DNA from: Jeotgalibacillus malaysiensis
GTDB lineage: Bacteria; Bacillota; Bacilli; Bacillales; Jeotgalibacillaceae
DNA: 64,000 nucleotides
Assembly (NCBI GenBank): GCA_000818095.1
Contig: CP009416.1
Coordinates: 110,001-174,000, forward strand
Reading direction: 5' to 3'
Shown here: one piece after another, positions 1,340 through 60,472 of the stretch
How the letters are laid out: each line of letters begins with the position of its first letter
Position numbering within the stretch: position 1 is the stretch's first letter
Translations under genes and position numbers: made by a program
The notes under the pieces: generated by a model
Database searches by the model: none
What the model saw: only the letters and a program-made list of their open reading frames with translations
Told to the model about the DNA's origin: nothing

Positions 1340-1515
1340 ATTAGCTCAACCCTGTGATCGATCCCTTCAATATTTGATTTAATTACTTCAATCTAGACAT
1401 TAATCACTTCAATCGCCATAATTCCCCTCTAAATTCCTTCATTCCATAAACTATTTTCATCAAAAAATTCATGAATCTCATCAACCAAAGCCATATTTCC
1501 TTCATTTGCCCATCC
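1340..1515 (-). repeat. 21/30-bp phased array A (eight TGA-anchored sites)
   Basis: On the + strand TCA occurs with its T at 1346, 1367, 1388, 1409, 1439, 1460, 1481 and 1502: spacing 21-21-21-30-21-21-21. Read on the minus strand the better sites approach TTGAAGGAATT (for example the site at 1439). A further copy 20 bp upstream (1326) may be a decayed extra unit. No gene is present; the ctsR promoter begins about 60 bp after the last site. Confidence 0.85.
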
Positions 1516-1568
1516 TTGCTATGTCCTGCCATCAATTTCATCCCACTCATCTTCTCCATTCGCCTCAA

Positions 1569-1598
1569 TTGCACATAAACTAAACCATGGTGTATAAT
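1569..1598 (+). promoter_or_regulatory. Likely sigma-A promoter of ctsR operon
   Basis: TTGCAC at 1569, 18-bp spacer, perfect TATAAT at 1593-1598. The CtsR operator begins four bases after the -10 box, where bound repressor would block initiation. Confidence 0.7.
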
Positions 1599-1601
1599 CA
1601 T

Positions 1602-1618
1602 AGTCAAAGATAGTCAAA
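1602..1618 (+). promoter_or_regulatory. CtsR operator
   Basis: Direct repeat AGTCAAA-GAT-AGTCAAA, matching the published CtsR heptad repeat (A/G)GTCAAANAN(A/G)GTCAAA. Its place over the transcription start implies autoregulation of the ctsR-mcsA-mcsB-clpC operon, as known in Bacillus. Confidence 0.9.
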
Positions 1619-1641
1619 GTTAAGGTGAGGGAGGTGGGAAT

Positions 1642-2103
1642 GTGAAAAATATTTCTGATGTGATTGAAAACTATTTGAAAGAGGTTTTAGAGAAGAGCGG
1701 GAGTGAAATAGTGGAGATAAAGCGCAGCGAGATTGCTGAGCGTTTCCAGTGTGTGCCCTCTCAGATCAATTATGTGATGAAAACCCGTTTTACGATTGAA
1801 AGTGGCTACGTTGTGGAGAGTAAGCGTGGCGGCGGAGGGTATATACGTATTATAAAAGTAAAAAGTGATGATCATGCGCATTTAATTGATCAGATTCTAG
1901 ATATTCTTCAGCCGGTTGTTCCACAGGCTGCTGCTGAGAGTGTGGTATTCCGGTTGATTGATGAAGGTGTGATTTCCAAGCGGGAAGCGAAGCTGATGCT
2001 GAGTGCGATGGACCGTTCTACTTTGAATGTGCCTTTGCCTTTAAGGGATGAGGTAAGAGGACGGATTCTGACGGCGATGCTGACGGTTTTAAAATATCAA
2101 TAA
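1642..2103 (+). CDS. ctsR: CtsR, transcriptional repressor of class III heat-shock genes
   Basis: A 153-residue protein, the usual length. CtsR is a dimeric winged-helix repressor that binds the heptad repeat found just upstream and is removed on heat or protein stress through McsB and ClpC. The N-terminal DNA-binding part is visible: RSEIAERFQCVPSQINYVM is the helix-turn-helix and RGGGGYIRI is the glycine-rich wing (about residues 61-70). The C-terminal half is the dimerisation/McsB-contact domain. The GTG start is chosen because GGGAGGTGGG lies 4-13 bases before it. It is the first gene of a four-gene operon with mcsA 18 bases further on, and is predicted to repress itself. Confidence 0.97.
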   Translation: MKNISDVIENYLKEVLEKSGSEIVEIKRSEIAERFQCVPSQINYVMKTRFTIESGYVVESKRGGGGYIRIIKVKSDDHAHLIDQILDILQPVVPQAAAESVVFRLIDEGVISKREAKLMLSAMDRSTLNVPLPLRDEVRGRILTAMLTVLKYQ

Positions 2104-2121
2104 GGTCGCGGGGTGATGAAT

Positions 2122-2670
2122 ATGATGTGTGAGCAATGCCAGGAGCGGCCTGCTGCTGTTCATTTGAAAAATGTTGTGAACGGTAAGAAGTCGGAGATTC
2201 ATTTGTGTGAGGTGTGTGCCCAGGATAAGGGTGAGGCGTTCATGAATGATGATGGTGGATTTTCGTTTAATCATTTACTTGCAGGGCTGTTAAATGTGTC
2301 GCCTGTGATGAAGCAGAGTCAGCCTCAGCAGAACAGACGTCAGACGGTTGAGTGCAGTGGCTGTGAAATGACGTTTGACCAGTTTTTAAAGATTGGAAAG
2401 TTTGGCTGTCCGAAGTGTTATGAATCCTTCAGGGATCAGCTGCCGCCTATTTTAAAAAGACTGCATAGCGGTAATACTGTTCATCAGGGAAAGCTGCCTG
2501 AGCGACAGGGCGGTACCATTCATATGAAGCGGAAGGTAACGGAGCTTCGTTCAGATCTGAAAGCTTTAATTGAGCAGGAAGAGTTTGAACAGGCAGCAGA
2601 AATTCGTGATCAGATCCGCTCACTTGAAGCTGAGATTCGTGATGAAGGGGGCGGTGCTGATGAGTCTTGA
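2122..2670 (+). CDS. mcsA: McsA, zinc-binding activator of McsB
   Basis: About 182 residues. McsA carries zinc-binding Cys-x2-Cys pairs and activates the arginine kinase McsB; it also takes part in stress and metal tolerance. Visible are CEQC near the N-terminus, CEVC about 26 residues later, CSGC and CPKC in the middle, and a C-terminal UVR helix ([19 protein letters not shown]), the motif through which such proteins contact ClpC. Four possible starts lie at 2113 (GTG), 2116, 2122 and 2125; 2122 is preferred for its distance to GGGGTG and because homologues start directly before the first CxxC. It overlaps mcsB by 11 bases, suggesting translational coupling. Confidence 0.93.
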
Positions 2671-3739
2671 GAAGTTTTTGAGTCAGGCGGTCAGTTCCTG
2701 GATGAATGAGGATGGTCCTTCGTCAGAGATTGTACTGTCTACACGAATCAGGCTGGCACGAAATCATCATCAGTATGCATTTCCGACTGTATTTACCCAG
2801 GAGGAAGCTGAGCAGACGGCTGAAGCAGTTGGTGCAGCTGTGAAGCATACAGGGTATCCGCTTGAGGAGCTGAAGATGAAGGAGCTGCAGGGGCTTGAAA
2901 AAAGGGTGCTTGTAGAAAAGCATCTGATCAGTCCGAATCTGGCAGAGGATTCAGGCGCATCCTCTGTATGGCTTTCAGATAATGAGGATATCAGCTTGAT
3001 GGTTAATGAAGAGGATCATTTGCGTATCCAGTGTTTGTTTCCAGGCCTTCAACTGAAAGAGGCACTGCATAAAGCACTTGAGATAGATGATGCGATTGAA
3101 CAGCATTTTGATTATGCGTTTGACGAGAACTATGGGTATTTGACGACCTGCCCGACAAATGTTGGGACGGGATTGCGTGCATCTGTTATGATGCATTTAC
3201 CAGGATTAATGATGACGCACCAGATGAACCGGATTATTCCTGCGATTGGACAATTTGGTCTTGTAGCGAGAGGAATTTACGGTGAAGGTAGCGAAGCTTT
3301 AGGTAACATCTTTCAGATCTCCAACCAGACGACACTCGGGAAGTCAGAAGAAGATATTACTGAGGACCTGTTGCATGTGGTAGATCAGATTATTGCCCAG
3401 GAGAAGTCAGCCAGGGAAGCGCTCGTTAAATCATCAGGGATCCAGCTTGAAGACAGAGTGTTCCGCTCTTATGGGACGCTGCGTTACAGCCGTGTGATTG
3501 AGTCAAAGGAAGCGGCGAAGTGCCTGTCGGATGTACGTCTTGGCATTGATCTCGGATTTATTGAAAACGTGTCGAGAAGCATTTTAAATGAGCTGATGAT
3601 TTTAACGCAGCCGGGATTTTTACAGCAGTATGCAGGAGGTTTCCTGCGTCCTGTGGAAAGAGATATCAGACGGGCTTCGCTGATCCGCGAGCGTCTGGAG
3701 ATGGATGTAAGTAAAGATAAAGGAGGATCAGACATATGA
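2660..3739 (+). CDS. mcsB: McsB, protein arginine kinase
   Basis: 359 residues, normal for the family. McsB phosphorylates arginines on CtsR and on damaged proteins, marking them for ClpCP. It belongs to the phosphagen (guanidino) kinase fold. Family signatures seen are [11 protein letters not shown] (nucleotide phosphate contacts), [11 protein letters not shown] (catalytic glutamate region), [13 protein letters not shown] (the conserved Cys loop) and [12 protein letters not shown]. The long open frame starts earlier, but the ATG at 2660 before [14 protein letters not shown] agrees with homologues. Its stop overlaps the clpC start in ATGA. Confidence 0.96.
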
Positions 3740-6174
3740 TGTTTGGACGATTCACAGAGAGAGCACAAAAAGTATTAGCATTGGCACAGGAAGAGGCGAT
3801 CCGTCTTTCCCATTCAAATATCGGTACTGAGCATATCCTTCTTGGCCTTGTTCGTGAAGGAGAGGGCATTGCAGCGAAAGCTCTGCAGACGCTTAATTTG
3901 AGCACAACGAAAATTCAGGAAGAAGTTGAAGAGCTGATCGGTAAAGGGACAGAACAGTCACCGAGCGTTCACTATACACCGAGAGCAAAAAAAGTAATCG
4001 AACTTTCTATGGATGAGGCACGAAAGCTTGGCCATTCTTATGTAGGAACTGAACATATTCTACTTGGACTGATCCGTGAAGGTGAAGGCGTGGCAGCGCG
4101 TGTACTGAATAATTTAGGTGTCAGCCTGAATAAAGCGCGCCAGCAGGTACTCCAGCTTCTTGGCAGTAACGAGGCAGGCGGGCAGCAGGCTTCAAATGCA
4201 AGTGCGAATACACCAACACTTGATGGACTTGCGCGTGACCTGACGGTGATTGCACGTGAAGGCAGTCTTGATCCGGTAATCGGAAGAAGCAAGGAAATTC
4301 AGCGTGTGATTGAAGTGTTAAGCCGACGTACGAAGAATAACCCGGTACTGATCGGGGAGCCTGGTGTCGGTAAAACAGCGATTGCTGAAGGCCTTGCACA
4401 GCAGATTGTACAAAATGAAGTGCCTGAAATCCTGCGTGATAAGCGCGTGATGACACTTGATATGGGTACAGTTGTTGCAGGTACAAAATACCGTGGTGAG
4501 TTTGAAGACCGCCTGAAAAAGGTGATGGATGAAATTCGTCAGGCGGGTAACGTCATTCTGTTTATCGATGAGCTTCATACGCTGATCGGTGCAGGTGGAG
4601 CAGAGGGTGCGATTGATGCATCCAATATCCTGAAGCCGTCTCTTGCACGTGGCGAGCTGCAGTGTATCGGTGCGACAACACTTGATGAGTACCGTAAGTA
4701 TATTGAAAAAGATGCAGCGCTTGAGCGTCGTTTCCAGCCGATTCAGGTGGATGAGCCGACTGCTGAAGAGTCAGTGCTGATCTTAAAAGGACTGCGTGAC
4801 CGTTATGAAGCACACCACCGTGTATCGATTACGGATGCAGCGATTGAAGCAGCAGTGAAAATGTCAGACCGTTATATTTCTGACCGCTTCCTGCCGGATA
4901 AAGCGATTGATTTAATTGATGAAGCAGGCTCAAAAGTACGTCTGCGTTCATATACTACACCTCCGAATCTAAAAGAGCTTGAAGCTAAGCTTGAAGGCAT
5001 CCGTAAAGAAAAGGATGCAGCGGTTCAGAGTCAGGAGTTCGAAAAAGCAGCTTCTCTTCGTGATTCAGAGCAGAAGACAAAGGAAAAGCTTGAAGAAACG
5101 AAGAAGGAATGGAAAGAAAAGCAGGGTCAGGAAAACACTGAAGTGACAGTTGAGGATATTGCACACGTTGTGTCTACTTGGACGGGTGTACCGGTATCAC
5201 GTCTTGCAGAGACTGAAACACAAAAGCTTCTGCACCTTGAAGAATCTCTTCATGGCCGTGTGATTGGCCAGGAAGATGCAGTAACAGCGATTGCAAAAGC
5301 AGTCCGCCGTGCACGTGCAGGTCTGAAGGATCCGAAGCGCCCGATTGGTTCATTCATTTTCCTTGGACCTACGGGTGTCGGTAAAACAGAGCTTGCCCGC
5401 GCACTTGCTGAATCAATGTTTGGTGAAGAGGATGCGATGATTCGTATTGATATGTCAGAGTATATGGAAAAGCACTCGACTTCACGTCTTGTCGGTTCAC
5501 CTCCAGGCTATGTGGGATATGAAGAAGGCGGTCAGCTGACTGAAAAAGTCCGCCGTAAGCCGTACTCAGTCGTGCTGCTTGATGAAATTGAAAAAGCACA
5601 CCCTGATGTATTTAACATCCTGCTGCAGGTACTTGAAGATGGACGCCTGACAGACTCTAAGGGCCGTACAGTTGATTTCCGTAACGTTGTCCTGATCATG
5701 ACTTCTAACGTTGGTGCAAGCGCACTGAAGCAGAACCGTCATGTCGGGTTTGCTGTACAGGATTCCAACCAGGATTATAAGGATATGAAGGGCAAAGTGC
5801 TTGAAGAATTGAAGCGTGCGTTCCGTCCTGAATTCCTGAATAGAATTGATGAAACGATCGTCTTCCACTCGCTTGAGAAGGATCACTTAAAGCAGATCGT
5901 ATCACTGATGTCAGGCGAGCTTGAGAAGCGTCTGAAGGAAAAGGATATTGAGCTTGTGATCACTGAGGCAGCGAAAGAGAAGATTTCAGATGAAGGATTT
6001 GATCCGGAATATGGAGCGCGTCCGCTGCGTCGTGCAATCCAGAAGCATATTGAAGACCGCCTGTCTGAAGAGCTGTTAAAAGGAAATGTGCTTGAGGGCT
6101 ATAAGGTGGAAATCGATTATAAAGACGGAGAATTTACTGTAACGCGTAAAGAAGAAGCAGATGTAACGCAATAA
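3736..6174 (+). CDS. clpC: ClpC, ATP-dependent Clp protease ATP-binding subunit
   Basis: 812 residues. ClpC is a Hsp100 AAA+ unfoldase that feeds substrates, including arginine-phosphorylated ones, into ClpP. Domains in order: two N-terminal Clp repeats (about 1-145), first AAA+ module with Walker A GEPGVGKT (about 207-214) and LFIDELHT, a middle domain with a UVR-like segment (about 425-460), and a second AAA+ module with Walker A GPTGVGKT (about 545-552), then the D2-small domain. ATG ATG at the start overlaps the mcsB stop, with AAAGGAGG upstream. A terminator follows. Last gene under CtsR control. Confidence 0.98.
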
Positions 6175-6182
6175 TGTCAGAA

Positions 6183-6220
6183 GGTGCACGTGTGAATGGT
6201 AGTCACGTGCACCTTTTTTA
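6183..6220 (+). terminator. Intrinsic terminator after clpC
   Basis: GGTGCACGTG, 11-base loop, CACGTGCACC, then a T run. The perfect 10-bp stem lies before radA, so the ctsR operon may end here in part, with radA continuing by read-through or from an unseen promoter. Confidence 0.85.
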
Positions 6221-6235
6221 ACGGAGGGAAAAGGT

Positions 6236-26316: not shown

Positions 26317-29300
26317 TTGATAGATGTTAATAACTTTGAATATATGAAAATTGGTTTAGCCTCACCTGACAAGATCCGCTCTTGGTCATTTGGTGAAGTA
26401 AAGAAGCCTGAAACGATTAACTATCGTACACTGAAGCCTGAAAAAGACGGTCTTTTCTGCGAGCGCATCTTCGGCCCGCAGAAAGACTGGGAGTGTCACT
26501 GCGGTAAATATAAGCGCGTCCGTTATAAGGGCGTCGTTTGTGACCGTTGTGGTGTTGAAGTAACGCGTGCGAAAGTTCGTCGTGAGCGTATGGGTCACAT
26601 CGAGCTTGCAGCACCTGTATCTCACATCTGGTACTTCAAAGGCATCCCGAGCCGTATGGGACTTGTTCTTGACATGTCACCACGTGCGCTTGAAGAAGTA
26701 ATCTACTTTGCTTCATATGTAGTAACTGAAGCAGGAGACACTGCACTTGAAAAGAAACAGCTTCTTTCTGAGAAGGAGTACCGTGCATACCGTGAAAAGT
26801 ACAGCGGCAAATTCCAGGCTGCAATGGGAGCTGAAGCAATCCGCAAGCTTCTACAGGACATTGATCTTGATAAAGAAGCGGAAATGCTGAAAGAAGAATT
26901 GAAAACTGCTCAGGGCCAGCGTCGTACTCGTGCGATCAAGCGTCTTGAAGTAGTAGAATCATTCCGTAACTCAGGAAACCTTCCTGACTGGATGGTTCTT
27001 GATGTACTTCCTGTAATCCCGCCGGAACTGCGTCCGATGGTTCAGCTTGATGGTGGACGTTTCGCCACATCTGACCTGAACGACCTGTACCGTCGTGTGA
27101 TTAACCGTAACAACCGTCTGAAGCGCCTATTGGACCTTGGTGCACCAAGCATCATCGTTCAAAACGAAAAGCGTATGCTGCAGGAAGCTGTAGATGCACT
27201 GATCGATAACGGCCGTCGCGGTCGTCCGGTTACAGGACCGGGTAACCGTCCGCTAAAATCTCTTTCTCATATGCTGAAAGGGAAGCAGGGGCGTTTCCGT
27301 CAGAACCTTCTTGGTAAGCGTGTTGACTACTCAGGCCGTTCAGTTATCGTAGTTGGACCTAGCCTGAAAATGTATCAGTGCGGACTGCCAAAAGAAATGG
27401 CACTTGAACTATTCAAGCCTTTCGTCATGAAAGAGCTTGTTGAGCGCGGACTTGCGCATAATATTAAGAGTGCAAAGCGTAAGATTGAACGTGTCCATGA
27501 TGAAGTTTGGGACGTACTTGAAGATGTAATCAAGGAGCATCCGGTTCTTCTTAACCGTGCACCTACACTTCACCGTCTTGGTATCCAGGCATTCGAACCA
27601 ACATTGGTTGAAGGCCGTGCGATCCGTCTTCACCCGCTCGTATGTACAGCTTATAACGCTGACTTTGATGGTGACCAGATGGCGGTTCACGTACCACTAT
27701 CATCTGAAGCTCAGGCTGAAGCGCGTCTTCTTATGCTTGCTGCACAGAACATCCTTAATCCGAAGGACGGAAAGCCAGTTGTTACACCGTCTCAGGATAT
27801 GGTACTTGGTAACTACTACCTGACATTAGAGCGTAAAGACGCTGTAGGTGAAGGTTCAGTATTCCGTGATGCGGATGAAGTCCTTCTTGCATACCAGAAT
27901 GGTTATGTACACCTGCACACACGTATTGCGATCCATGCAGGTGCAGTAAATAAACCAACATTTACGGAAGAACAGAATAAGAAGCTTCTTCTGACAACTG
28001 TCGGAAAAGTAATCTTTAACGAAATTCTTCCTGAAGAGTTCCACTACATTAACGAGCCGACAATGGAGAACCTTGAGGTGAATACACCTGATAAGTACTT
28101 CGTTGATCCGACGACGAATGTAAAAGAACACTTCAAATCAGCTGATCTGGTAACGCCGTTTAAGAAAGGATTCCTTGGAAGCATCATTGCTGAAGTCTTC
28201 AAGCGATTCCACTTAACGGATACGTCTAAAATGCTTGATAGCATGAAGAATCTTGGATTTAAGCACTCAACACGTGCTGGTATCACAATTGGTATCGCTG
28301 ATATCGTGGTACTTCCTGAGAAGCAGGAAATCCTTGACGATGCACAGCTGAAAGTAGATAAAGTCCAGAAGCAGTTCCGACGTGGTCTGATTACAGAAGA
28401 GGAGCGCTATGAGCGTGTTATCTCAATCTGGTCAGCAGCGAAGGATGTTATTCAGGACAAGCTGATGCTTACACTCGACAGCCTGAATCCAATCTACATG
28501 ATGAGTGACTCAGGTGCCCGTGGTAACGCATCTAACTTTACGCAGCTTGCCGGAATGCGTGGTCTGATGGCCAACCCTGCTGGACGTATCATCGAGCTTC
28601 CGATCAAGTCAAGTTTCCGTGAAGGTCTGACAGTACTTGAGTACTTCATCTCTACACACGGTGCACGTAAAGGTCTTGCCGATACAGCACTGAAGACTGC
28701 CGATTCAGGTTACCTGACTCGCCGACTTGTAGACGTAGCACAGGATGTTATTGTCCGTGAAGAAGATTGCGGTACTGACCGTGGTCTGCGCGTAAGCTCA
28801 CTGAAAGATGGCACAGAAGTCATCGAAGCACTTGAAGAGCGTCTTGAAGGACGTTACTCTAACCAGACAGTCAAGCATCCTGAAACTGGGGAAGTCTTCG
28901 TAAGACGTAATGAACTGATTACAGAAGATATTGCCCGTCAGATTGTTGAAGCTGGTGTAGAAGAAGTATCAATCCGTTCTGCATTCACTTGTAACACGCG
29001 TCATGGCGTATGTGAGAAGTGTTATGGTAAGAACCTTGCGACTGGTGAAAAAGTTGAAGTCGGCGAAGCAGTCGGAATCATTGCAGCCCAGTCAATCGGT
29101 GAGCCGGGTACACAGCTTACAATGCGTACATTCCACACAGGTGGTGTAGCAGGAGACGATATCACACAGGGTCTTCCGCGTATCCAGGAAATCTTCGAAG
29201 CGCGTAACCCGAAAGGTCAGGCAACGATTTCTGAAATTGATGGTGTCGTAACCGAGATCACAGAAGGTAAAGACCGTCAGCAGGATATTACAGTAAAAGG

Positions 29301-29916
29301 TGAAGTAGAAACAAAGACTTATTCTGCTCCTTATACTGCACGTCTGAAAGTAGCAGTTGACGATGTCATCGAACGCGGTCAGGTTCTGACAGAAGGTTCA
29401 ATCGATCCGAAAGAACTGATCAAGATCCGTGACGTTGCTGCTGTTCAGGAATATCTATTAAAAGAAGTACAGAAAGTATACCGTATGCAGGGTGTTGAAA
29501 TCGGTGATAAGCACGTTGAAGTCATGGTTCGCCAGATGCTTCGTAAAGTACGTGTCATTGAATCCGGTGAAACAGAACTGCTGCCAGGTTCACTGCTTGA
29601 TGTACATCAGTTCATGGAAGCAAACGAACAGGTTCTGCTTGAAGGTAAGCAGCCGGCAACAGGCCGCCCGCTTATCCTGGGGATCACAAAAGCATCTCTT
29701 GAAACAGAATCATTCCTTTCAGCTGCATCATTCCAGGAGACAACTCGTGTCCTGACAGACGCAGCGATCAAAGGAAAGCGTGACGAGCTCCTTGGTCTGA
29801 AAGAAAATGTTATCATCGGTAAACTTGTTCCAGCCGGAACGGGTATGCAGCGCTATCGCCAGGCTGAGATCGAAAACGAAGACATTCCAGAGGAAGAAGC
29901 AGTTTCCGTGGAATAA
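26317..29916 (+). CDS. rpoC: RNA polymerase beta' subunit
   Basis: 1199 residues, identical in length to B. subtilis. Zinc-binding site ECHCGKYKR with VVCDRCGVE near 60-80; catalytic NADFDGDQM near 447-455; second zinc site CGTDRG / [12 protein letters not shown]; trigger loop region [19 protein letters not shown] start at 26317 with AGGGAGGT upstream. Followed by a strong terminator, so rpoBC ends here. Confidence 0.98.
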
Positions 29917-29935
29917 TTCACAGCCTGTGAAAGCA

Positions 29936-29970
29936 AAAAGGTGGCGCCCCTGTGTGGCGTCACCTTTTTT
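29936..29970 (+). terminator. Intrinsic terminator after rpoC
   Basis: GGTGGCGCC, 7-base loop, GGCGTCACC and T6. The stem of 9 bp has one G-U pair. Confidence 0.9.
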
Positions 29971-30049: not shown

Positions 30050-30225
30050 GCTTGCTTGAAGGAATAAAATGTTAAGCTGATGGAATGCTCTTCATTGTTG
30101 AAGGGATTCTAACTCCTTATGAAGGAATTAACAGGTGTTCAATAGACAATGAAGGAATCTTATACAAGATTGAATGAATTACTTGCAAATTGAAGCAATT
30201 CATTTCTATTCCGAAGCAAAAATCA
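30050..30225 (+). repeat. 21/30-bp phased array B (eight TGA-anchored sites)
   Basis: TGA (last one CGA) starts at 30057, 30078, 30099, 30120, 30150, 30171, 30191 and 30212: spacing 21-21-21-30-21-20-21. The site word is TTGAAGGAATT and is near perfect at 30120 and 30150. It starts about 85 bp after the rpoC terminator and ends about 120 bp before the rplGB promoter. The rest of the 503-bp gap shows nothing else. Confidence 0.85.
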
Positions 30226-33969: not shown

Positions 33970-35160
33970 ATGGCTAAGGAAAAATTCGACCGTTCGAAAA
34001 CCCATGCGAATATTGGAACAATCGGACACGTTGACCATGGTAAAACAACTCTAACTGCTGCAATCACAACTGTACTTCACAAGAAATATGGTCGTGGATC
34101 TGCAATGGCATACGATCAAATCGATGGTGCTCCAGAAGAGCGCGAGCGCGGAATCACAATCTCAACTGCACACGTTGAGTACGAAACTGACACTCGTCAC
34201 TATGCACACGTTGACTGCCCAGGACACGCTGACTATGTTAAGAACATGATCACTGGTGCTGCTCAAATGGACGGCGGTATTCTTGTAGTATCTGCTGCTG
34301 ATGGCCCAATGCCACAGACTCGTGAGCACATCCTTCTATCTCGTCAGGTAGGTGTACCTTACCTTGTTGTATTCATGAACAAGTGTGACATGGTAGACGA
34401 CGAAGAACTACTTGAACTAGTTGAAATGGAAATCCGTGACCTTCTTTCTGAGTACGATTTCCCTGGCGACGACATTCCAGTAATCAAAGGTTCTGCACTT
34501 AAAGCTCTTGAAGGAGAAGCTGAGTGGGAAGAGAAAATCTTCGAACTTATGGAAGCTGTAGATAGCTACATTCCAACTCCTGAGCGTGACACTGACAAGC
34601 CATTCATGATGCCAGTTGAGGACGTATTCTCAATCACTGGTCGTGGTACAGTTGCTACTGGACGTGTTGAGCGTGGACAAGTTAAAGTTGGTGACGAAGT
34701 AGAAATCATCGGTCTTTCTGAAGAGCCGAAGAAAACTACTGTAACTGGTGTTGAAATGTTCCGTAAGCTTCTTGACTATGCAGAAGCTGGCGACAACATT
34801 GGTGCACTTCTTCGTGGGGTTTCTCGCGACGACATCAACCGTGGACAGGTTCTTGCTAAGCCAGGAACAATCACTCCACACACAAACTTCAAAGCTGAAG
34901 TTTATGTTCTATCAAAAGAAGAAGGTGGACGTCACACTCCATTCTTCACTAACTACCGCCCACAGTTCTACTTCCGTACTACGGACGTAACTGGCGTATG
35001 TAACCTTCCTGAAGGAGTAGAAATGGTTATGCCTGGCGACAACATCGAAATGACTGTTGAGCTAATCTCTCCTATCGCAATCGAAGAAGGAACTAAGTTC
35101 TCTATTCGTGAAGGTGGACGTACAGTAGGCGCTGGCGTTGTAGCTTCTATCCAGAAGTAA
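33970..35160 (+). CDS. tuf: Elongation factor Tu
   Basis: 396 residues. Delivers aminoacyl-tRNA. GHVDHGKTT (about 18-26), DCPGH, NKCDM and the effector region RGITIS are all present, with domains II and III complete. AGGAGG 7 bases before the ATG. Strong terminator after it. Confidence 0.98.
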
Positions 35161-35180
35161 TTTCTGCTAACGTATACAGA

Positions 35181-35210
35181 TCCTGCATCCTTATGGGTGC
35201 AGGATTTTTT
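35181..35210 (+). terminator. Intrinsic terminator after tuf
   Basis: TCCTGCATCC, loop TTAT, GGGTGCAGGA and T6. The 10-bp stem has one G-U pair. Confidence 0.92.
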
Positions 35211-35284: not shown

Positions 35285-35458
35285 GGTGACCGGAAAAGGG
35301 GGTGGATATGACCTTAAATTTCCCGGAGGTGACCCGGAAATTTGGGAATGTGACCCGAAAATCGCCAATCTGAAAAAACGTGATCCGAAAAATCCAGGAG
35401 GTGACCCGGAAATTTCAGAATGTGACCCAAAAATCTCCGGACGTGACCCGAATTCCCG
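35285..35458 (+). repeat. 21/30-bp phased array E (eight GTGACC-type sites)
   Basis: The T of TGA is at 35287, 35309, 35330, 35351, 35381, 35402, 35423 and 35444: spacing 22-21-21-30-21-21-21. The site word is GTGACCCGAAATTT, clearly different from array B but on the same grid. It lies between the tuf terminator and an unknown gene, and is followed by a C-rich stretch. An ORF read through it gives a GDPEI/CDPKI-like heptad repeat; that is a by-product of the 21-bp period. Confidence 0.88.
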
Positions 35459-35579: not shown

Positions 35580-36044
35580 ATGCAGCCAATCCATCTCTGG
35601 CTATCAGTCTATGACAGACAGACAAAGAAGCCGAAACGCAACATCCAGCCGATACTCCCAATTATTATTAATGCTTACCAGGCGTCACTTAACAATGCGC
35701 CCATCAATCAAAAAACAATCACCAGTCTCACCGAAAAATCCCACCTCCATGAGCAATACATCTCTCAACTTAAACAATGGGAGAGGGGAGGGTACTTCAC
35801 TATAGAAGAAAGACGATTCGGTCAAATGGTCTCAAGAATTTTTCACTTAGATCAAAAAGCTTCAGCTGCCTTCCAAAGCTTAAAAGAATACCAGGACCGG
35901 ATCGACCTGCACATACAGACAAATGAAGATCTGCACTATCAGACATTCTCTGCCTTACTTAACACCAGAGAACAGCGCGGACAGACAAATCATCCATGGG
36001 CAGAAGCTGCCTCACAACTCATCAGCAATATGAAAAACCAATGA
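35580..36044 (+). CDS. Hypothetical protein, unrecognised
   Basis: 154 residues, not recognised. AAAAGGAG lies 9 bases before the ATG, and the frame is clean, so it is likely translated. The protein has no signal peptide or membrane segment. It is rich in Gln, charged and helical; an N-terminal segment IHLWLSVYDRQTKKPKR precedes predicted helices, and the C-terminal half is likely all-helical (FHLDQKASAAFQSLKEYQDR). Codon use is more A/C-rich than the ribosomal neighbours. It is inserted between tuf and the S10 operon, a point where Bacillus species carry different unrelated genes, and is flanked by array E and the rpsJ promoter. Function unknown. Confidence 0.65.
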   Translation: MQPIHLWLSVYDRQTKKPKRNIQPILPIIINAYQASLNNAPINQKTITSLTEKSHLHEQYISQLKQWERGGYFTIEERRFGQMVSRIFHLDQKASAAFQSLKEYQDRIDLHIQTNEDLHYQTFSALLNTREQRGQTNHPWAEAASQLISNMKNQ

Positions 36045-54277: not shown

Positions 54278-54289
54278 GGAGTGAAATCA

Positions 54290-55024
54290 ATGCGAATTAA
54301 ATGTACCGTCTCATATGACGGCTCCCAGTTCTACGGCTATCAGGTGCAGCCGGGGCAGCGGACTGTCCAGGGAGAGATCGAACAGGCGCTTAGTGACGTG
54401 CATAAAGGGAAGTTCGTCCGAATCACAGCGAGCGGCCGGACAGATGCAGGCGTACACGCCATGGGACAGGTCTTTCATTTTGATACAGACCTACAAGTAC
54501 CCGCCGCTAAATGGCCAGTCATCCTGAATCAGAAAATTGGTGATGACGTCGCTGTATTAAGCGCTGAGGAAGCTTCTGAGACGTTTCATGCGCGCTTTGA
54601 TGTAAAAACGAAGGAATACCGTTATATCGTTAATACAAGCCCTGTAGCGCTGCCATTCAGACGCCACTACGCTGTACATTATCCGTACACAGTAGATATA
54701 GAAGCCATGCGTCAGGCTGCTGCTTACTTAGAAGGGGAGCATGACTTCACCAGCTTCTCATCTGCGAAAACAGAAGTCGTCGACCGCGTGCGGAATATTG
54801 AGTTTATTAAGATAGAAGCATTTGAAGGAGAATTGATTTTCCGCGTGAAAGGGAACGGCTTCCTTTATAATATGGTCCGGATTATCGCAGGTACGCTGCT
54901 TGAAGTAGGGAACGGGAAGTATCAGCCTGAGGATGTTTTGAAGATGCTTGAAGCAAAAGACCGCGGTGCGGCAGGCAAAACGGCGCCTGCGCATGGGTTA
55001 TATTTGTGGGAAGTGAATTACTGA
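54290..55024 (+). CDS. truA: tRNA pseudouridine(38-40) synthase TruA
   Basis: 244 residues. Catalytic aspartate in ASGRTDAGVHAMGQ; also KTKEYRY and FLYNMVRIIAGTLLEVG. ATG 54290 chosen over GTG 54281 because of AAGGAGTG spacing. No terminator is seen directly after it. Confidence 0.96.
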   Translation: MRIKCTVSYDGSQFYGYQVQPGQRTVQGEIEQALSDVHKGKFVRITASGRTDAGVHAMGQVFHFDTDLQVPAAKWPVILNQKIGDDVAVLSAEEASETFHARFDVKTKEYRYIVNTSPVALPFRRHYAVHYPYTVDIEAMRQAAAYLEGEHDFTSFSSAKTEVVDRVRNIEFIKIEAFEGELIFRVKGNGFLYNMVRIIAGTLLEVGNGKYQPEDVLKMLEAKDRGAAGKTAPAHGLYLWEVNY

Positions 55025-55063
55025 GGGTGAATAGAAGTGAGGCGGGGGTGAGAGTAGTTTTGG

Positions 55064-55230
55064 TTTCGGGTCACCTTCGCCGGATTTGCGGTCACATTGT
55101 TTGATTTTCGGGTCATGTTCCAGAAATTTCAGGTCACATAATCCGAAAAGTTAAAATGTCAGGTCATCTCCGCTGGATTTCGGGTCAGCTCTCAACAAAC
55201 TAAGGTCACCTCCCGAAATTTTACGATCAC
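55064..55230 (-). repeat. 21/30-bp phased array F (eight GGTCAC-type sites)
   Basis: The T of TCA is at 55071, 55092, 55113, 55134, 55164, 55185, 55206 and 55227: spacing exactly 21-21-21-30-21-21-21. On the minus strand the word is GTGACCCGAAATTT, the same as array E in the opposite orientation. It starts 40 bp after truA. From 55240 to 55430 I see no gene or other element. Confidence 0.9.
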
Positions 55231-55462: not shown

Positions 55463-55471
55463 AGCCTATGG

Positions 55472-55586: not shown

Positions 55587-56024
55587 ATGCGTACAACATT
55601 TATGGCTAAAGGCCACGAAGTAGAACGCAAGTGGCTAGTTGTAGACGCTGAAGGTCAAACTCTTGGACGTCTTGCAAGCGAAGTAGCTGCGATTCTACGC
55701 GGTAAAAATAAACCGACATTCACACCTAACGTTGACACAGGTGATCACGTAATCATCATCAACGCTGACAAAATTCATCTTACAGGTAAGAAGCTGACTG
55801 ACAAGATCTACTACCGTCACAGCATGCACCCAGGTGGACTTAAGCAGCGTACAGCACTAGAAATGCGCACTAAGTACCCACGTCAAATGCTGGAGCTTGC
55901 AATTAAAGGTATGCTTCCAAAGAACTCTCTTGGACGCCAGATCTTCAAAAAGCTTCACGTATATGCAGGCGCTGAGCACCCGCACCAGGCTCAAAAACCA
56001 GAAGCGTACGAACTACGCGGTTAA
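55587..56024 (+). CDS. rplM: 50S ribosomal protein L13
   Basis: 145 residues, early assembly protein. [34 protein letters not shown]-like ([13 protein letters not shown]) and [18 protein letters not shown] are conserved. AGGAGGT before the ATG. Confidence 0.98.
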
Positions 56025-56050
56025 TCTAATTTAAAGAGGAGGTAACTATC

Positions 56051-56443
56051 TTGGCACAAGTTCAATATATCGGCACAGGCCGTCGTAAAAGCTCTACTGC
56101 TCGTGTACGTCTAGTACCAGGTAACGGCACAATCGTTATCAACGGACGCGACGTTGAAAACTATATCCCATTCGCAACTCTACGCGAAGTAATCAAGCAG
56201 CCACTTAACATTACTGAAACACTTGGAAGCTATGACATCCACGTAAATGTTAACGGTGGTGGTTACACTGGACAAGCTGGAGCAATCCGTCACGGAATCT
56301 CCCGCGCACTTCTTACTGTAGATCCAGAATACCGCGGCTCACTTAAGCGCGCAGGTCTTCTGACTCGTGATGCTCGTATGAAAGAGCGTAAGAAGCCAGG
56401 TCTTAAAGGCGCACGTAGAGCACCTCAGTTCTCAAAGCGTTAA
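56051..56443 (+). CDS. rpsI: 30S ribosomal protein S9
   Basis: 130 residues. The C-terminal tail ([14 protein letters not shown]) reaches P-site tRNA. TTG start with GAGGAGGT upstream. Coupled with rplM as in most bacteria. Confidence 0.97.
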
Positions 56444-56462
56444 TTTTCTTTTTCGCTTATAC

Positions 56463-56492
56463 AAACCCCCAGGCGATCGCCTGGGGGTTTTT
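56463..56492 (+). terminator. Intrinsic terminator after rpsI
   Basis: AAACCCCCAGGCG, short loop, CGCCTGGGGGTTTTT: a nearly perfect palindrome with a T tail. Confidence 0.95.
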
Positions 56493-56539
56493 CTGTATGC
56501 GTATTTAGATATAAAAGTCGGAGTGTGCGTTGAGAAATC

Positions 56540-56703
56540 TGATGATGGGATACTTCCCAATATTGAAGGAATTAGTTACTGATTTGAAGGAATAATTCCT
56601 CCGCCTGAAGTAAATATCATCTTATAAAGGTCACCAGAAGGAATCATTTCAGGATTGAGGCAATTGATCCTGAAATTGAGTAAATCAATTCACAGATCGG
56701 TTC
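56540..56703 (+). repeat. 21/30-bp phased array C, abutting the IS element
   Basis: Anchors at 56543, 56564, 56585, 56606, 56636 (AGA), 56656 and 56677: spacing 21-21-21-30-20-21. The word is TTGAAGGAATT as in array B. The expected eighth site at about 56698 is not recognisable and the IS begins about five bases later. Two more TTGAAGGAATT-type sites (58249, 58269) lie on the other side of the IS. Confidence 0.8.
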
Positions 56704-56892
56704 GGCCCCCTAATGTTGGACACGATTTGTTTTGTTGTTGAAAGAATTTTAGCACATTCCAAACTGATGATAAAACTTGGTACTAAGGCTTCAACGGCCT
56801 TGTCTTCGTACTTAGGTGATCAGAGAAGGTTTTTTAAGGCTGACCTCACAGTGATCAGCCATTATCATCGCTTGACCAGATACAATCATCTC

Positions 56893-57837
56893 CTAGAGAT
56901 TGATTGAGAAGGCAGTACAATTGTTTTTAACTGCTTCGAAGAATTTCTTCGGTGACAGATTGCCAAGGCTGCCGTGCGGTCTGCGTTCGTTGTAAAATTT
57001 CACATAGTCGTTGATATAGTATATCGCATGATCGAACGTCACCAGCTCAACCTCGTGACGAACTATACACTCACGTTGTAACTGGCTGTGATATGACTCG
57101 ATAAAGGCATTCAGGTTGGGAGATGCATTCGGTATACGCTCATGGTAAAGACCATGAAACGCGCAATATTTCGCAAAACTGTGACTGATAAACTGTGGTC
57201 CATTGTCTGTACGGATGATCAGTTTCTGCTCACCACTCCCTGGCTTCAGATGCACCTTGCGTCGTAAGATGGCTTTCATCACCGTCCGCATTACGTCTTC
57301 AGACCTGCAGGTCCTTCCGCAATAATACCCGACGATCTGTCGGTCGTAGACATCGATAACGTTACACGTCATCAGAAAGAACCCAGCTTCTTTTAAGGGG
57401 ACATATTTGATGTCCATCTGCCAAAGTTGGTTAACGGCTGTCACGCTCCGGTTTCTCGCGAGTTGGCGCTTAGGACGGTTGGTCTTACTTCGTTTTTTTA
57501 ATACGCCGAGCTCCTTACAAAGTCGATAGACTTTTTTGGCATTGATCACTAACTTCCTCTCTGTCCTCAAGAGGATACCCCACTTTCGATAGCCTAGACC
57601 TCCGATCAAATCGTCTTCGCTGAACTCACAGAGAAACTCTTTAATCTCTTCATCAGAGACTGGCGTGCCATCTAAAGTGTATGAGACCCCTGGAAAGGGT
57701 CGTCCTCTCTTCTTCATCTGGATGTTCCCTCCCATCATCAATTGATAGTAGTAGGTCGAGCGGCCAAGTCCGAGTATTGAAAGAACTCTCTTAGCCTGGA
57801 AGCCTTGGTCGATCCATTGTTTTGCGATCTCATGCAT
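56893..57837 (-). CDS. IS3-family transposase OrfB (DDE integrase domain)
   Basis: 314 residues from the internal ATG. HTH_21 region followed by an rve catalytic core: first Asp in QMDIKYVPL, second in RTDNGPQF, Glu in AFIESYHSQ, with 35 residues between the last two (DD35E). The intact triad and open frame suggest activity. In IS3 elements the active enzyme is the OrfAB fusion; upstream of the ATG the frame stays open to the slippery site, giving KKKTLLISEMHEI. Confidence 0.93.
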   Translation of the reverse strand: MHEIAKQWIDQGFQAKRVLSILGLGRSTYYYQLMMGGNIQMKKRGRPFPGVSYTLDGTPVSDEEIKEFLCEFSEDDLIGGLGYRKWGILLRTERKLVINAKKVYRLCKELGVLKKRSKTNRPKRQLARNRSVTAVNQLWQMDIKYVPLKEAGFFLMTCNVIDVYDRQIVGYYCGRTCRSEDVMRTVMKAILRRKVHLKPGSGEQKLIIRTDNGPQFISHSFAKYCAFHGLYHERIPNASPNLNAFIESYHSQLQRECIVRHEVELVTFDHAIYYINDYVKFYNERRPHGSLGNLSPKKFFEAVKNNCTAFSINL

Positions 57838-57845
57838 TTCTGATA

Positions 57846-58157
57846 TTAGTAAGGTCTTTTTTTTACAAGGTCTTTTAAGACCGCGATTTCCAACTCTTTC
57901 TCACCAAGCAGACGCATCGCTCGTTCGTACTGCTGCTTGTAATAGTCACCCGATTTTTCAAGAGGAAGAACTTCCCCTGATTCCACCTCCGCCTCCATCT
58001 CTTCTCGGACTTCATCTCCATACTCATTCATCCAAGCAGTCAAAGTACTACGATGAACGCCTGCTGTCTTGGCAGTTGTGACGATCTTGTTGGTCTCGAG
58101 TGCCATTCGGACATATTTCTTTTTGATCTCTTCAAAAGCCTGAACCTTCTTTCGCAT
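57846..58157 (-). CDS. IS3-family transposase OrfA
   Basis: 103 residues. N-terminal helix-turn-helix (KTAGVHRSTLTAWMNEYG) for inverted-repeat binding and a C-terminal leucine-zipper-like part (RLLGEKELEIAVLKDL). Near its end the codons GTA AAA AAA AGA contain the run A8G (plus-strand 57856-57864), suitable for -1 frameshifting into OrfB. GGAAAGGGGG stands before the start on the minus strand. Confidence 0.9.
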   Translation of the reverse strand: MRKKVQAFEEIKKKYVRMALETNKIVTTAKTAGVHRSTLTAWMNEYGDEVREEMEAEVESGEVLPLEKSGDYYKQQYERAMRLLGEKELEIAVLKDLVKKRPY

Positions 58158-58245
58158 AAAAGTGCCCCCTTTCCTGTGGAGTCGTTTGATATCAGTGTAA
58201 ATCCAACATCAATTCGTGTCCAAGGTATTAAGGGGGCTAGAAAGA

Positions 58246-58300
58246 GATTGATGGAATAATTCACGAAATGAAGGGAATCCACCCATCCACCCATCCACCC
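58246..58300. repeat. Array C remnant and 8-bp tandem repeat right of the IS
   Basis: Two sites GATTGATGGAATAA and AATGAAGGGAAT lie 20 bp apart (TGA at 58249 and 58269). They are followed by ATCCACCC three times in tandem (58277-58300), which on the minus strand gives three GGG runs separated by TGGAT. Confidence 0.65.
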
Positions 58301-58358
58301 ACCTGGACAGCTCGTAATCACTCTACCACCACCTCTAATCCACTCCCCATAAATAAAG

Positions 58359-58386
58359 TCTATCTTCTTAACTACTCGCATATACT
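58359..58386 (+). promoter_or_regulatory. Possible sigma-E promoter of cwlD
   Basis: GTCTAT, 14-bp spacer, CATATACT; the -10 agrees with the sigma-E pattern CATACAHT at 7 of 8 positions. cwlD is a mother-cell gene in B. subtilis. The -35 is weak. Confidence 0.4.
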
Positions 58387-58412
58387 CCTCTAGAAAATAA
58401 GGAGGACAGGAC

Positions 58413-59027
58413 ATGCTGAGGAAATCACTCATACTCGCGGCGATTGTGCTGCTAATCGGGATGGCTGCAGGTGCACTGTTGTACGCAGTGGAGGAGTGGA
58501 GTCTGCCGCTGACCGGTGAAGTCATTGTGCTTGACCCCGGCCACGGCGGTCTGGACGGCGGTGCAAATTATGAAACCATCCTGGAAAAGAACCTGACATT
58601 ATCAATTGCGAAAAAACTGCAGGCTTACCTTGAGGAGCAGGGGGCTATTGTGATTTTATCCAGAGAGACAGATAAAGATCTGGCCTCTGAAGGAACAAAA
58701 GGATTCAGGGACCGTAAAAGAGAGGACCTTAAAAATAGACTTGAGCTCATCAATAACAAAGATAACGACTTGTTCATCAGCATTCACCTGAACGCAATCC
58801 CTGAAGCAAGGTGGAAGGGACCCCAGACATTTTATACAACTTATAATGACCAAAATGAGCGGCTCGCAAGGTTTATTCAGCATGAGTTGAACAGACATAT
58901 TCCAGATAGCAAAAGAAAATCCAAGCCGATCGACGGCATTTATGTACTAAGTCATGCTGAGACGCCTGGTGTACTGGTGGAAGCAGGGTTTCTTTCCAAC
59001 CCTGAGGAGCGGTACTGGCTGCTCTAA
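58413..59027 (+). CDS. cwlD: CwlD, spore cortex N-acetylmuramoyl-L-alanine amidase, truncated by an in-frame stop
   Basis: 204 residues up to a TAA; the family is about 230-240. CwlD with PdaA makes muramic delta-lactam in spore cortex, needed for germination. An N-terminal signal anchor (LILAAIVLLIGMAAGALLYA) is followed by an Amidase_3 domain: zinc ligands in LDPGHGGLDGG (His), the Glu in ILEKN, and ISIHLNA (His), with the catalytic Glu in LVEAGFLSN. All are before the stop. After TAA at 59025-59027 the same frame continues for 27 codons with the normal family C-terminus (DDYQQQVAAAIYIGILRHY). So either a nonsense mutation, a sequencing error, or a read-through case; last helix lost. AAGGAGG before the ATG. 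Confidence 0.88.
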   Translation: MLRKSLILAAIVLLIGMAAGALLYAVEEWSLPLTGEVIVLDPGHGGLDGGANYETILEKNLTLSIAKKLQAYLEEQGAIVILSRETDKDLASEGTKGFRDRKREDLKNRLELINNKDNDLFISIHLNAIPEARWKGPQTFYTTYNDQNERLARFIQHELNRHIPDSKRKSKPIDGIYVLSHAETPGVLVEAGFLSNPEERYWLL

Positions 59028-59111
59028 GATGATTATCAGCAGCAGGTGGCAGCTGCCATTTATATCGGAATTCTGAGACATTATTCCAAAGAAGATGAGC
59101 CTCCTGAGTGA
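59028..59111 (+). pseudogene. cwlD: Orphaned C-terminal end of cwlD
   Basis: 27 in-frame codons and TGA (59109-59111) directly after the premature TAA. The translation QQQVAAAIYIGIL aligns with the last helix of complete CwlD proteins. No start codon or ribosome binding site of its own. Confidence 0.8.
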
Positions 59112-59129
59112 ACTTGAGCGTTTCACCTA

Positions 59130-59138
59130 TGTTATACT
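59130..59138 (+). promoter_or_regulatory. Extended -10 promoter of mrp/salA
   Basis: TGTTATACT, a TGn-extended -10 box, 39 bases before the TTG start; no good -35 is seen. Confidence 0.45.
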
Positions 59139-59176
59139 TGCATAGATGAAAACGAATTCAAAAGGAGTGTCTTGTT

Positions 59177-60235
59177 TTGGTAACTGAACAGCAGGTTAGA
59201 GAATTGCTCGGTTCTATGAATGATCCGATTTTACATACAACGCTTGCGGAAACTGAAGGTATCGTGGAAGTAAGCATTAAGGAAGAAAAGAATCACGTCA
59301 GCGTGAAAATTGCGCTTGCAAAAACAGGAACAGCTGAACAGATGCAGCTTCAAATGGCTGTTGTCGAAGCGCTTAAAGGTGCTGGTGCTGAGACAGTAGG
59401 GATCCGTTTTACAGAGCTTGAGCCTGAAAAGCTTGAGAAGTTCCGCGGCCAGCAGGGTGATGCAGTAGAAGATAATCTGCTTGCACCAGGCAATAAGGTT
59501 CAGTTCATTGCAATCGCCAGCGGTAAAGGCGGGGTAGGAAAATCAACGGTATCTGTAAACCTTGCAGTCGCACTTGCGCGTCAGGGGAAAAAGGTTGGAC
59601 TGATTGATGCAGATATCTACGGATTCAGTGTGCCTGATATGATGGGGATCAATAAACGTCCGGTCGTACGCGGCGAGCGTATTATTCCGGTTGACCGTAA
59701 AGGTGTCAAAGTCATTTCGATGGCCTTTTTCGTTGAAGACAATGCACCTGTTATCTGGAGAGGCCCAATGCTTGGTAAGATGCTGAACAGCTTCTTTACT
59801 GAAGTGGAGTGGGGCGAGCTTGACTACCTGCTGCTTGATCTGCCACCGGGTACGGGAGATGTAGCGCTTGATGTGCATGCGATGCTGCCATCAAGTAAGG
59901 AAATCATCGTCACAACGCCTCACCCGACAGCTGCATTCGTTGCAGCGCGTGCAGGGGCAATGGCGCTTCAGACTGAGCATTCGATTCTCGGCGTTGTAGA
60001 GAACATGTCTTACTATGAAAGCAAGAAGACAGGCGAACGTGAGTATGTATTTGGTACAGGCGGCGGAGAAAAGCTTGCAGAAGAGCTGCGCACAGAGCTT
60101 TTAGGTAAATTACCGCTTCAGCAGCCTGACTGGGATGAAGATGATTTCGCTCCATCTGTATACGCAGAAGATCATAAGCTTGGTAAGATTTATGATCAGA
60201 TTGCTGAAGAAGTGATTGATAAGACAACTGAATGA
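59177..60235 (+). CDS. salA: Mrp/NBP35-family ATP-binding protein (SalA type)
   Basis: 352 residues. N-terminal MIP18 (DUF59) domain of about 90 residues, then a deviant Walker A P-loop ASGKGGVGKST near 114-124 and LLLDLPPGTGD. The CxxC present after VENM in many iron-sulphur carriers is missing (here VENMSYYESKKTG), as I recall for B. subtilis SalA, a regulator of scoC. Iron-sulphur transfer or gene regulation are both possible. TTG start with AAAGGAGTG upstream. Order cwlD-salA is conserved in Bacillus. Confidence 0.92.
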   Translation: MVTEQQVRELLGSMNDPILHTTLAETEGIVEVSIKEEKNHVSVKIALAKTGTAEQMQLQMAVVEALKGAGAETVGIRFTELEPEKLEKFRGQQGDAVEDNLLAPGNKVQFIAIASGKGGVGKSTVSVNLAVALARQGKKVGLIDADIYGFSVPDMMGINKRPVVRGERIIPVDRKGVKVISMAFFVEDNAPVIWRGPMLGKMLNSFFTEVEWGELDYLLLDLPPGTGDVALDVHAMLPSSKEIIVTTPHPTAAFVAARAGAMALQTEHSILGVVENMSYYESKKTGEREYVFGTGGGEKLAEELRTELLGKLPLQQPDWDEDDFAPSVYAEDHKLGKIYDQIAEEVIDKTTE

Positions 60236-60243
60236 TTGATTTG

Positions 60244-60273
60244 AAACGACCTCATTTAATGGGGTCGTTTTTT
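60244..60273 (+). terminator. Intrinsic terminator after salA
   Basis: AAACGACCTC, 7-base loop, GGGGTCGTTT with T6; one G-U pair. Confidence 0.9.
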
Positions 60274-60299
60274 CATGGGAAAAATGTAGGAGGTCGCGC

Positions 60300-60472
60300 G
60301 TAATTGGCTCACAATTTAAAGGGATTGATTCACCGCTCTGATTAATCGATTCATCTCCCGGATTTATTGAACGAAAAGGTATTGAGTCAGCAATTTATGT
60401 ATCATCACCCTCGAAAATTGGTTCACCGCCGCACGTAATTGAATCACCTCACAGCATATTTGAACGCACGCC
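60300..60472 (-). repeat. 21/30-bp phased array D (eight-site grid)
   Basis: TCA with its T at 60309, 60330, 60351, 60402, 60423 and 60444; the grid places 60372 (CGA) and 60465 (CGC) hold decayed sites. Spacing 21-21-21-30-21-21-21. The word on the + strand is AATTGATTCACC, on the other strand TGAATCAATT. It starts 36 bp after the salA terminator. From 60480 to 60740 only a 22-codon ORF (60584-60652) is seen. Confidence 0.8.

What the first reader, a model, noticed from the sequence alone, without database searches (positions are those of the whole stretch)
1346..60467. Six intergenic arrays share one exact geometry: eight sites spaced 21-21-21-30-21-21-21
Measured directly: TGA/TCA anchors at 1346-1502, 30057-30212, 35287-35444, 55071-55227, 56543-56677 and 60309-60465 fall on the same grid, with four sites, a 30-bp step, then four sites. 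Deviations are at most 1 bp. The total anchor span is 155-157 bp in the complete arrays. 21 and 30 bp are close to two and three helical turns, so all sites face the same side of the DNA. Such constraint without conserved spacer sequence suggests binding by an ordered protein assembly or phased bending. I know no named repeat family with this layout.
Basis: partly seen in the sequence, partly recalled or inferred. Interest (0 to 1): 0.92.

Follow-up and report, generated by a model that had tools for sequence, protein, structure and literature searches.

The report
Eight-site phased arrays across a chromosome
Many spots between genes in a salt-tolerant marine bacterium carry the same ruler of eight short DNA words, spaced 21-21-21-30-21-21-21 bases, and related species can keep the ruler while changing the words, which suggests landing strips for an unknown, orderly DNA-binding assembly.

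Summary
Six arrays lie on the reported grid; the genome holds 20 exact 8/8 grids, the reversed-pattern control none. The genome is Jeotgalibacillus malaysiensis D5T, judged by an exact megaplasmid length match. Eight of 12 congeners are rich in paired words 21 bp apart; 14 arrays fitted in three of them have central steps of 29-31 bp. Each site is a word of roughly 10-13 bp (TGACCYGAAATTT, TGAAGGAATT and others), all in one direction, with near-random spacers. At one orthologous spot three sister species keep position, orientation and 4+4 layout but use another word. No reading frame is consistently open; none of 23 classifiable arrays lies between divergent genes. The 33 matches of the main class avoid 1.02 Mb around the terminus (P=0.00035) and the megaplasmid. 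Best reading: a composite operator for a cooperatively assembling DNA-binding protein, perhaps organising or insulating the chromosome. Neither protein nor function was found. Against: some orthologous arrays have decayed, some folds of the main class are stable.

The parts
1336..1504 (-). Array 1, TGAAGGAAT-type words, between 5S rRNA (973-1088) and ctsR (from 1642)
   Evidence: 8/8 TGA, exact grid; rRNA by Rfam, CtsR by Pfam; near copy at C1:995528
30057..30224 (+). Array 2, TGAAGGAAT-type words, between ORF 26317-29916 (rpoC by position, not tested) and ribosomal protein S12 (30770)
   Evidence: 7/8 TGA, one step of 20; terminator-like stem at 29935-29969; S12 by Pfam
35287..35456 (+). Array 3, TGACC class, between EF-Tu (33970-35160) and ORF 35580-36044
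   Evidence: 8/8 TGA, first step 22; terminator-like stem at 35178-35207; aligned ortholog in G008; EF-Tu by Pfam
55061..55229 (-). Array 4, TGACC class, between TruA (54281-55024) and ORF 55587-56024 (L13 by recall)
   Evidence: 8/8 TGA, exact grid; TruA family by Pfam; among congeners only G005 has an array there, with another word
56543..56710 (+). Array 5, TGAAGGAAT-type words, 6 of 8 anchors, after ORF 56051-56443 (S9 by recall) and before an integrase-core ORF
   Evidence: 6/8 TGA, central step 29; exact pair of words at 56563-56593; terminator-like stem at 56463-56490
60299..60467 (-). Array 6, third word class (TGAWYCAATT-like), after ORF 59177-60235
   Evidence: 6/8 TGA; word-free grid score 185 of 308 with step 30; neighbour is a ParA/Mrp-type NTPase by Pfam

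Best explanation
Each array is one composite DNA operator: eight sites of about 13 bp, all pointing the same way, two helical turns apart within two groups of four, with about three turns between the groups. A sequence-specific DNA-binding protein would fill the sites and assemble cooperatively (four plus four), so distances are held while spacer letters are free. The protein would read TGA plus an A/T-rich tail; its taste for the bases between drifts among species and the arrays follow. The filled arrays would be nucleoprotein nodes near the 3' ends of transcription units, away from the terminus and off the megaplasmid, most likely organising or insulating the chromosome. SHOWN: grid, words, free spacers, orthologous persistence in some pairs, a word change at one conserved spot, placement, scarcity around the terminus. 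INFERRED: the protein, its cooperativity, the direction of the word changes, and the chromosome-level function.
For: 20 exact grids against 0 reversed. 22 arrays, 176 units: the five letters of TGACC are each 91-100% fixed, the middle of the unit is near random. Hit distances in G011 and G009 cluster on the 4+4 ladder; 14 arrays from G008, G009 and G011 fit central steps 29 (3), 30 (4), 31 (7) when 21-42 was allowed. Four orthologous pairs without a deletion in the array: words 70-88% identical, spacers 42-67%. In L048 against its G011 ortholog, 0 of 8 units read GTAA in G000 and 7 of 8 in G011. Same spot and orientation with another word in G011, G007, G008: best grid 21/29, scores 168, 180, 173, mononucleotide-shuffle maxima 122-125. 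Three window arrays are on each strand although most neighbouring genes are on plus. 0 of 23 between divergent genes. Empty 1.02 Mb around the terminus, P=0.00035; no match of the class on C2.
Against: No protein found. Flanks (partly coding) were 69-86% identical in the four pairs, so words are not better kept than flanks, only better than spacers. Of 12 pairs run, six are decayed or gapped, one (L046-L246) has words 0.64 and spacers 0.60, and one was mis-anchored. At truA-rplM only G000 and G005 of 12 have an array. TGACC arrays fold as RNA somewhat better than shuffles on the word strand (8 folded, mean z about -2.0, four at -2.7 or below). The terminus stretches were chosen after the gap was seen.
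Confidence: 0.55

Rival explanations
1. Selfish interspersed repeats (BIME- or MITE-like): arrays are spread and kept by a transposase-type protein that reads the words; species-specific words reflect coevolution with that protein.
For: Many dispersed, mostly intergenic copies; lineage-specific presence; words differ among congeners. REPs and their RAYT transposases coevolve and inter-REP segments can be unrelated (passages of PMC2817692). L039 and L053 share 81% over array and 3' flank.
Against: Spacers are unrelated among most copies; some arrays sit at orthologous places in several species; the terminal inverted-repeat test was weak (P 0.028); no clean empty site was seen (by eye).
Confidence: 0.2
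2. Transcription insulator or roadblock: arrays and their protein stop read-through beyond terminators. This is a narrower form of the best explanation.
For: 0 of 23 arrays between divergent genes; three window arrays start 53-88 bp after a strong terminator-like stem.
Against: Both orientations occur; does not by itself explain scarcity around the terminus.
Confidence: 0.2
3. A structured or processed RNA is the functional product.
For: Eight TGACC arrays folded on the word strand: z -1.20, -2.97, -3.05, -2.74, -1.09, -3.99, -0.76, -0.38.
Against: Opposite strand of six: mean z about -1.1; two TGAAGG-class arrays: z -0.36, 1.28, 1.34, 1.50. No helix stands out by covariation in 36 arrays, classes mixed. 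No Rfam match at the arrays. Either orientation relative to genes.
Confidence: 0.07
4. Intrinsic DNA curvature from in-phase A/T tracts, without a dedicated protein.
For: Words carry an A/T-rich tail repeated every two turns.
Against: The non-A/T part (TGACC) is the most conserved part; curvature was not computed.
Confidence: 0.06
5. The arrays are binding sites of the nucleoid occlusion protein Noc.
For: Noc sites are likewise absent from the terminus in B. subtilis (passages of PMC4331003). Noc palindromes within one mismatch are more numerous in the 8 array-rich species (12-23) than in the other 4 (7-9). One palindrome lies inside an array (C1:88023) and in its G008 ortholog.
Against: Noc is in 12 of 12 congeners, including the 4 not array-rich; the palindrome is present in all 12; the array words do not resemble it.
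Confidence: 0.03

Closest known systems
REP/BIME extragenic repeats with RAYT transposases
   Same: Dispersed, extragenic, species-specific words, regularly spaced units, possible role in chromosome organisation (abstract start and passages of PMC2817692)
   Different: BIME units are palindromes in alternating orientation; here sites are direct, fixed at 4+4 with a two-turn period
Noc-binding sites of Bacillus (and SlmA sites)
   Same: Dispersed over the chromosome, absent around the terminus (passages of PMC4331003)
   Different: A single 14-bp palindrome per site, same in all 12 congeners; not an eight-word array
ParR-parC plasmid centromeres and iteron-type direct repeats
   Same: Clusters of direct repeats with family-specific words read cooperatively; pSK41 ParR binds 20-bp repeats (passages of PMC9426499)
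   Different: One locus per plasmid beside its par genes; here tens of chromosomal loci beside unrelated genes
Unnamed uniform 20-21-bp arrays in other Bacillales (seen here, G012, G058, G029, G038, G056)
   Same: Two-turn period, mostly outside long open frames
   Different: No fixed 4+4 layout; unit number varies; in G012/G058 most of the unit is conserved

Membership tests
REP/BIME | Extragenic, many copies | tested here: met
   33 matches of one class in G000; 23 of 26 arrays placed between ORFs
REP/BIME | Palindromic units in alternating orientation | tested here: not met
   All eight units of an array point the same way and the 13-bp word is not a palindrome; only the short GGTGACC part is nearly self-complementary
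REP/BIME | RAYT-type transposase in the genome | not tested
MITE or insertion sequence | Terminal inverted repeats and clean empty sites | tested here: inconclusive
   Flank pairing P 0.028, mostly composition; no clean empty site by eye at two spots
Noc-binding sites | Palindrome ATTTCCCGGGAAAT (recalled) | tested here: not met
   Present in all 12 genomes independently of array richness; seen inside one listed array, C1:88023
Noc-binding sites | Scarce around the terminus | tested here: met
ParR-parC centromere | Direct repeats of about 10-20 bp | tested here: met
ParR-parC centromere | Single locus beside parM/parR | tested here: not met
   Tens of loci; nine window neighbours scanned: CtsR, S12, EF-Tu, TruA, integrase core, amidase, ParA/Mrp-type NTPase, SAF protein, one without family; no ParM or ParR
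Structured RNA of Rfam | Match at gathering score | tested here: not met
   Only 23S and 5S rRNA, a T-box and an L10 leader in the window
Composite protein-binding operator | Bound by a protein, cooperatively | not testable with these tools
   Needs pull-down or footprinting

The most novel reading that the evidence does not exclude
A chromosome-wide system of geometry-coded nucleoprotein nodes. Identity lies in a ruler of 4+4 sites (21-21-21-30+/-1-21-21-21), not in sequence. An unidentified DNA-binding factor and its tens of eight-site arrays change recognition word together between sister species. The nodes avoid the terminus and the megaplasmid and serve chromosome organisation, segregation or division timing. 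Related two-turn arrays with other words occur in other Bacillales families.
Probability: 0.35. Interest if true: 0.93.

Novelty: categorically new. Interest (0 to 1): 0.85.

Why it matters
Dispersed repeats are normally recognised by shared sequence. Here spacing is what persists, which is a strong handle on a protein assembly that I found no description of. Within one genus there are species rich in arrays, species not clearly enriched, and decayed copies, so a search for the reader protein, and for how a factor and hundreds of its sites change specificity, becomes tractable.

Tried and rejected
Coding repeats (21 and 30 are multiples of 3): no frame is consistently open, best 9 of 36 arrays, and +/-1 shifts occur. 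Closing stem or terminal inverted repeats: own-pair mean 22.2 against 20.8 for mismatched pairs, P 0.028. Internal RNA helices: no clear one in 36 mixed arrays; fold z-scores are given under the RNA rival. Noc sites: rejected. Viral contigs: 42 stretches, 5 placements outside open frames of 100 codons, none array-like by eye. The B. subtilis 190-bp repeat and the B. cereus bcr1 repeat were recalled as leads; neither sequence was compared (searches are the searches). A C2 stretch had no match among plasmids.

Rows dropped or weak: L180-L183, L189-L191 and L196 were left out as other families or coding. One search ran 12 pairs: four usable (L045-L250; L036-L245, unit 1 split by a large gap; L032-L185; L048-L247, 7 inserted bases near the last unit); six decayed or gapped (L042-L254, L042-L259, L033-L260, L033-L266, L033-L267, L254-L259); L046-L246 with little word excess; L266-L267 mis-anchored on apparent coding DNA; 8 of 20 loci gave no array above threshold., 334-kb set: 17 non-coding rows, of which two (steps 27 and 22) were set aside as not array-like, and 5 coding-like rows, one of which (window array 35287, in a 153-codon open frame) I count as an array. 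One search used a provisional count of 18 arrays; one search replaces it with 13 or 16. One search scored 150 of 643 first-look candidates in G000, so its counts are lower bounds.
Full report
WHAT IS THERE. Three have 8 of 8 TGA, one has 7, two have 6. In 20 Markov resamples of the window, one strand, nothing reached 7 and four places reached 6. In the whole genome the exact 8-TGA grid occurs 20 times and 6 more times with one mismatch; the reversed pattern occurs 0 times at up to 3 mismatches. With the word left free, scanning C1 1-334000 over period 15-30 and step 15-45 peaks at 21/30: 19 clusters, about 5 of them runs of N, against 14 at 21/29, 12 at 21/21 and at most 9 at any other period.

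THE ORGANISM. C1 begins with a gene whose translation I recognise as DnaA (recalled), and its GC skew changes sign near 1.72 Mb. C2 is 603,070 bases, the stated length of megaplasmid pJeoMA of Jeotgalibacillus malaysiensis D5T (passage of PMC5027565). I take the genome to be that strain.

ANATOMY. In 22 TGACC-class arrays (176 units) the unit is TGACCYGAAATTTNNNGRANG; the five letters of TGACC are each 91-100% fixed, GAAATT is partly fixed, the middle of the unit is near random. Unit 4 is 30 bp long, with an A/T-rich stretch just before unit 5. Four exact arrays of the TGAAGGAAT class share a 3' flank; one of them, window 1346, lies beside a 5S rRNA gene. Array 60309 shows a third word. Within an array the eight sites point the same way. 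No frame is consistently open in 36 arrays, and no pairing helix stands out, though TGACC arrays fold somewhat better than shuffles on the word strand (mean z about -2.0 of 8).

ACROSS SPECIES. Twelve genomes of the genus were searched with the pair RRTGANNGAWWWA at 21 bp, up to 2 mismatches. Hits/reversed control: G005 212/4, G008 120/2, G000 78/5, G004 73/1, G011 68/2, G007 60/2, G009 56/1, G006 26/0; not clearly enriched: G001 15/3, G002 12/5, G010 11/3, G003 9/7. In the two genomes whose full lists I tabulated, most distances between hits fall on the 4+4 ladder, with a central step near 29 in G011 and near 31 in G009. Fitting the step freely from 21 to 42 in 20 loci of G008, G009 and G011 gave 14 arrays: 29 (3), 30 (4), 31 (7); 8 loci gave none. 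A sequence-only model of the TGACC class found 33 matches in G000, 16 in G008, 12 in G011, 11 in G006, 7 in G007 and 0 in the other seven (lower bounds, weak matches included).

ORTHOLOGY. Of 12 pairs run, four are intact enough to compare. None of the four has a deletion in the array; words are 70-88% identical, spacers 42-67%, flanks (partly coding) 69-86%. So words are kept better than spacers but not better than flanks. In one pair, 0 of 8 units read GTAA in G000 and 7 of 8 in G011 (L048, L192/L247). The other eight pairs are decayed, gapped, mis-anchored or without clear word excess. After the gene of L038:771-1397, G000 has a TGACC array; G011, G007 and G008 have, at the same spot and in the same orientation, an array with the word AAAGGTGATAGATAAAA whose best grid is 21/29 (scores 168, 180, 173; mononucleotide shuffles scored at 21/30 reached 122-125); G006 has none, and the other seven have a different gene there. 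At the second spot examined, G000 has a TGACC array, G011 a few units of another word, G008 two units, and no array was seen in the others (by eye). Between EF-Tu and the S10 gene, G000 and G008 share an aligned array, and G005 has what look like three tandem arrays of TGATCGATA words. Between truA and ORF 55587 only G000 and G005 of 12 have an array. Arrays come and go; while intact they keep the ruler.

PLACEMENT. Of 26 arrays, 23 could be classified with a simple ORF caller: 14 between tandem genes, 9 between convergent genes, 0 between divergent genes; under an assumed 20% divergent share the chance is 0.006. Three window arrays start 53-88 bp after a strong terminator-like stem. The 33 matches leave 1.243-2.268 Mb of C1 empty (P=0.00035 for a gap that large), around the skew change, and none is on C2. 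A word-free scan found 13 arrays of the 4+4 form and 3 uniform 21-bp arrays in the first 334 kb, against 1 in 460 kb around the terminus. Per intergenic region of 250 bp or more this is 13 or 16 of 76 against 1 of 65, P 0.0016 or 0.0004. The terminus stretches were picked after the gap had been seen.

BEYOND THE GENUS. In 20 genomes of other Bacillales families (about 291 kb) the only 4-unit arrays above threshold outside open frames of 100 codons had periods 20 (two) and 21 (one), in G056 and G029. Among 28 short loci beside the same gene, G038 has one array of period 21 and one of 20. G012 and G058 have 21-bp arrays with a conserved unit. Two-turn word arrays may be a wider Bacillales habit, of which 4+4 is one form.

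HOW IT LIKELY WORKS. Constant distances, free spacers, a two-turn period, one-way sites and either orientation relative to genes point to double-stranded DNA read by an assembling protein. The word change at conserved geometry suggests that the assembly fixes spacing while base preference drifts. Scarcity around the terminus and on the megaplasmid points to chromosome organisation or cell-cycle use, in the manner of Noc sites, absent from the terminus in B. subtilis (passages of PMC4331003). But Noc and its palindrome occur in all 12 congeners, array-rich or not, although palindromes are more numerous in the array-rich ones (12-23 against 7-9). The protein was not found; the function is an inference.

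NOVELTY. Ten literature searches and Rfam gave no such element. Nearest analogues are REP/BIMEs (abstract start and passages of PMC2817692) and ParR centromeres (passages of PMC9426499); each fails a tested defining feature. Most subscription papers are not in the library, so an earlier description cannot be excluded.

Noticed in passing
G000:C1:33945, 92045, 201036 (L224, L227, L230); L286 (G004), L283 (G009): Uniform 21-bp arrays of about six or more words of the TTCNNNGAA type, without the long central step.
   Followed up: partly
Upstream of L033, L039, L044, L051, L053, L054, L056 (about -210 to -40; in L039 two copies): A separate repeat of roughly 100-170 bp lies just upstream of several TGACC arrays.
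   Followed up: no
G000:C1:88023-88036 and G008:C9:44727-44740: An exact Noc palindrome sits inside an array in both orthologs.
   Followed up: no
12 congeners: Noc palindromes within one mismatch number 12-23 in the array-rich species and 7-9 in the others.
   Followed up: no
window 56893-57837 (minus), with 57846-58157: Integrase-core ORF with HTH_21, IS3-like by recall, next to array 5.
   Followed up: no
window 35580-36041 (plus): 154-aa ORF without a Pfam match between array 3 and the S10 gene; similar DNA in G008.
   Followed up: no
L219 (G005), EF-Tu to S10 spacer: What look like three tandem TGATCGATA arrays, similar to each other, suggesting local duplication.
   Followed up: no
L199 (G008), spacer upstream of the L13 gene: A different inserted sequence of about 120 bp or more lies where G000 has array 4.
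   Followed up: no
L310 (G038), L312 and L330 (G056), L315 and L331 (G029): 20- and 21-bp arrays with other words (TAATCTT, ATAAGTGCG, GTGGATT, AAGCGACC) in other Bacillales families.
   Followed up: partly
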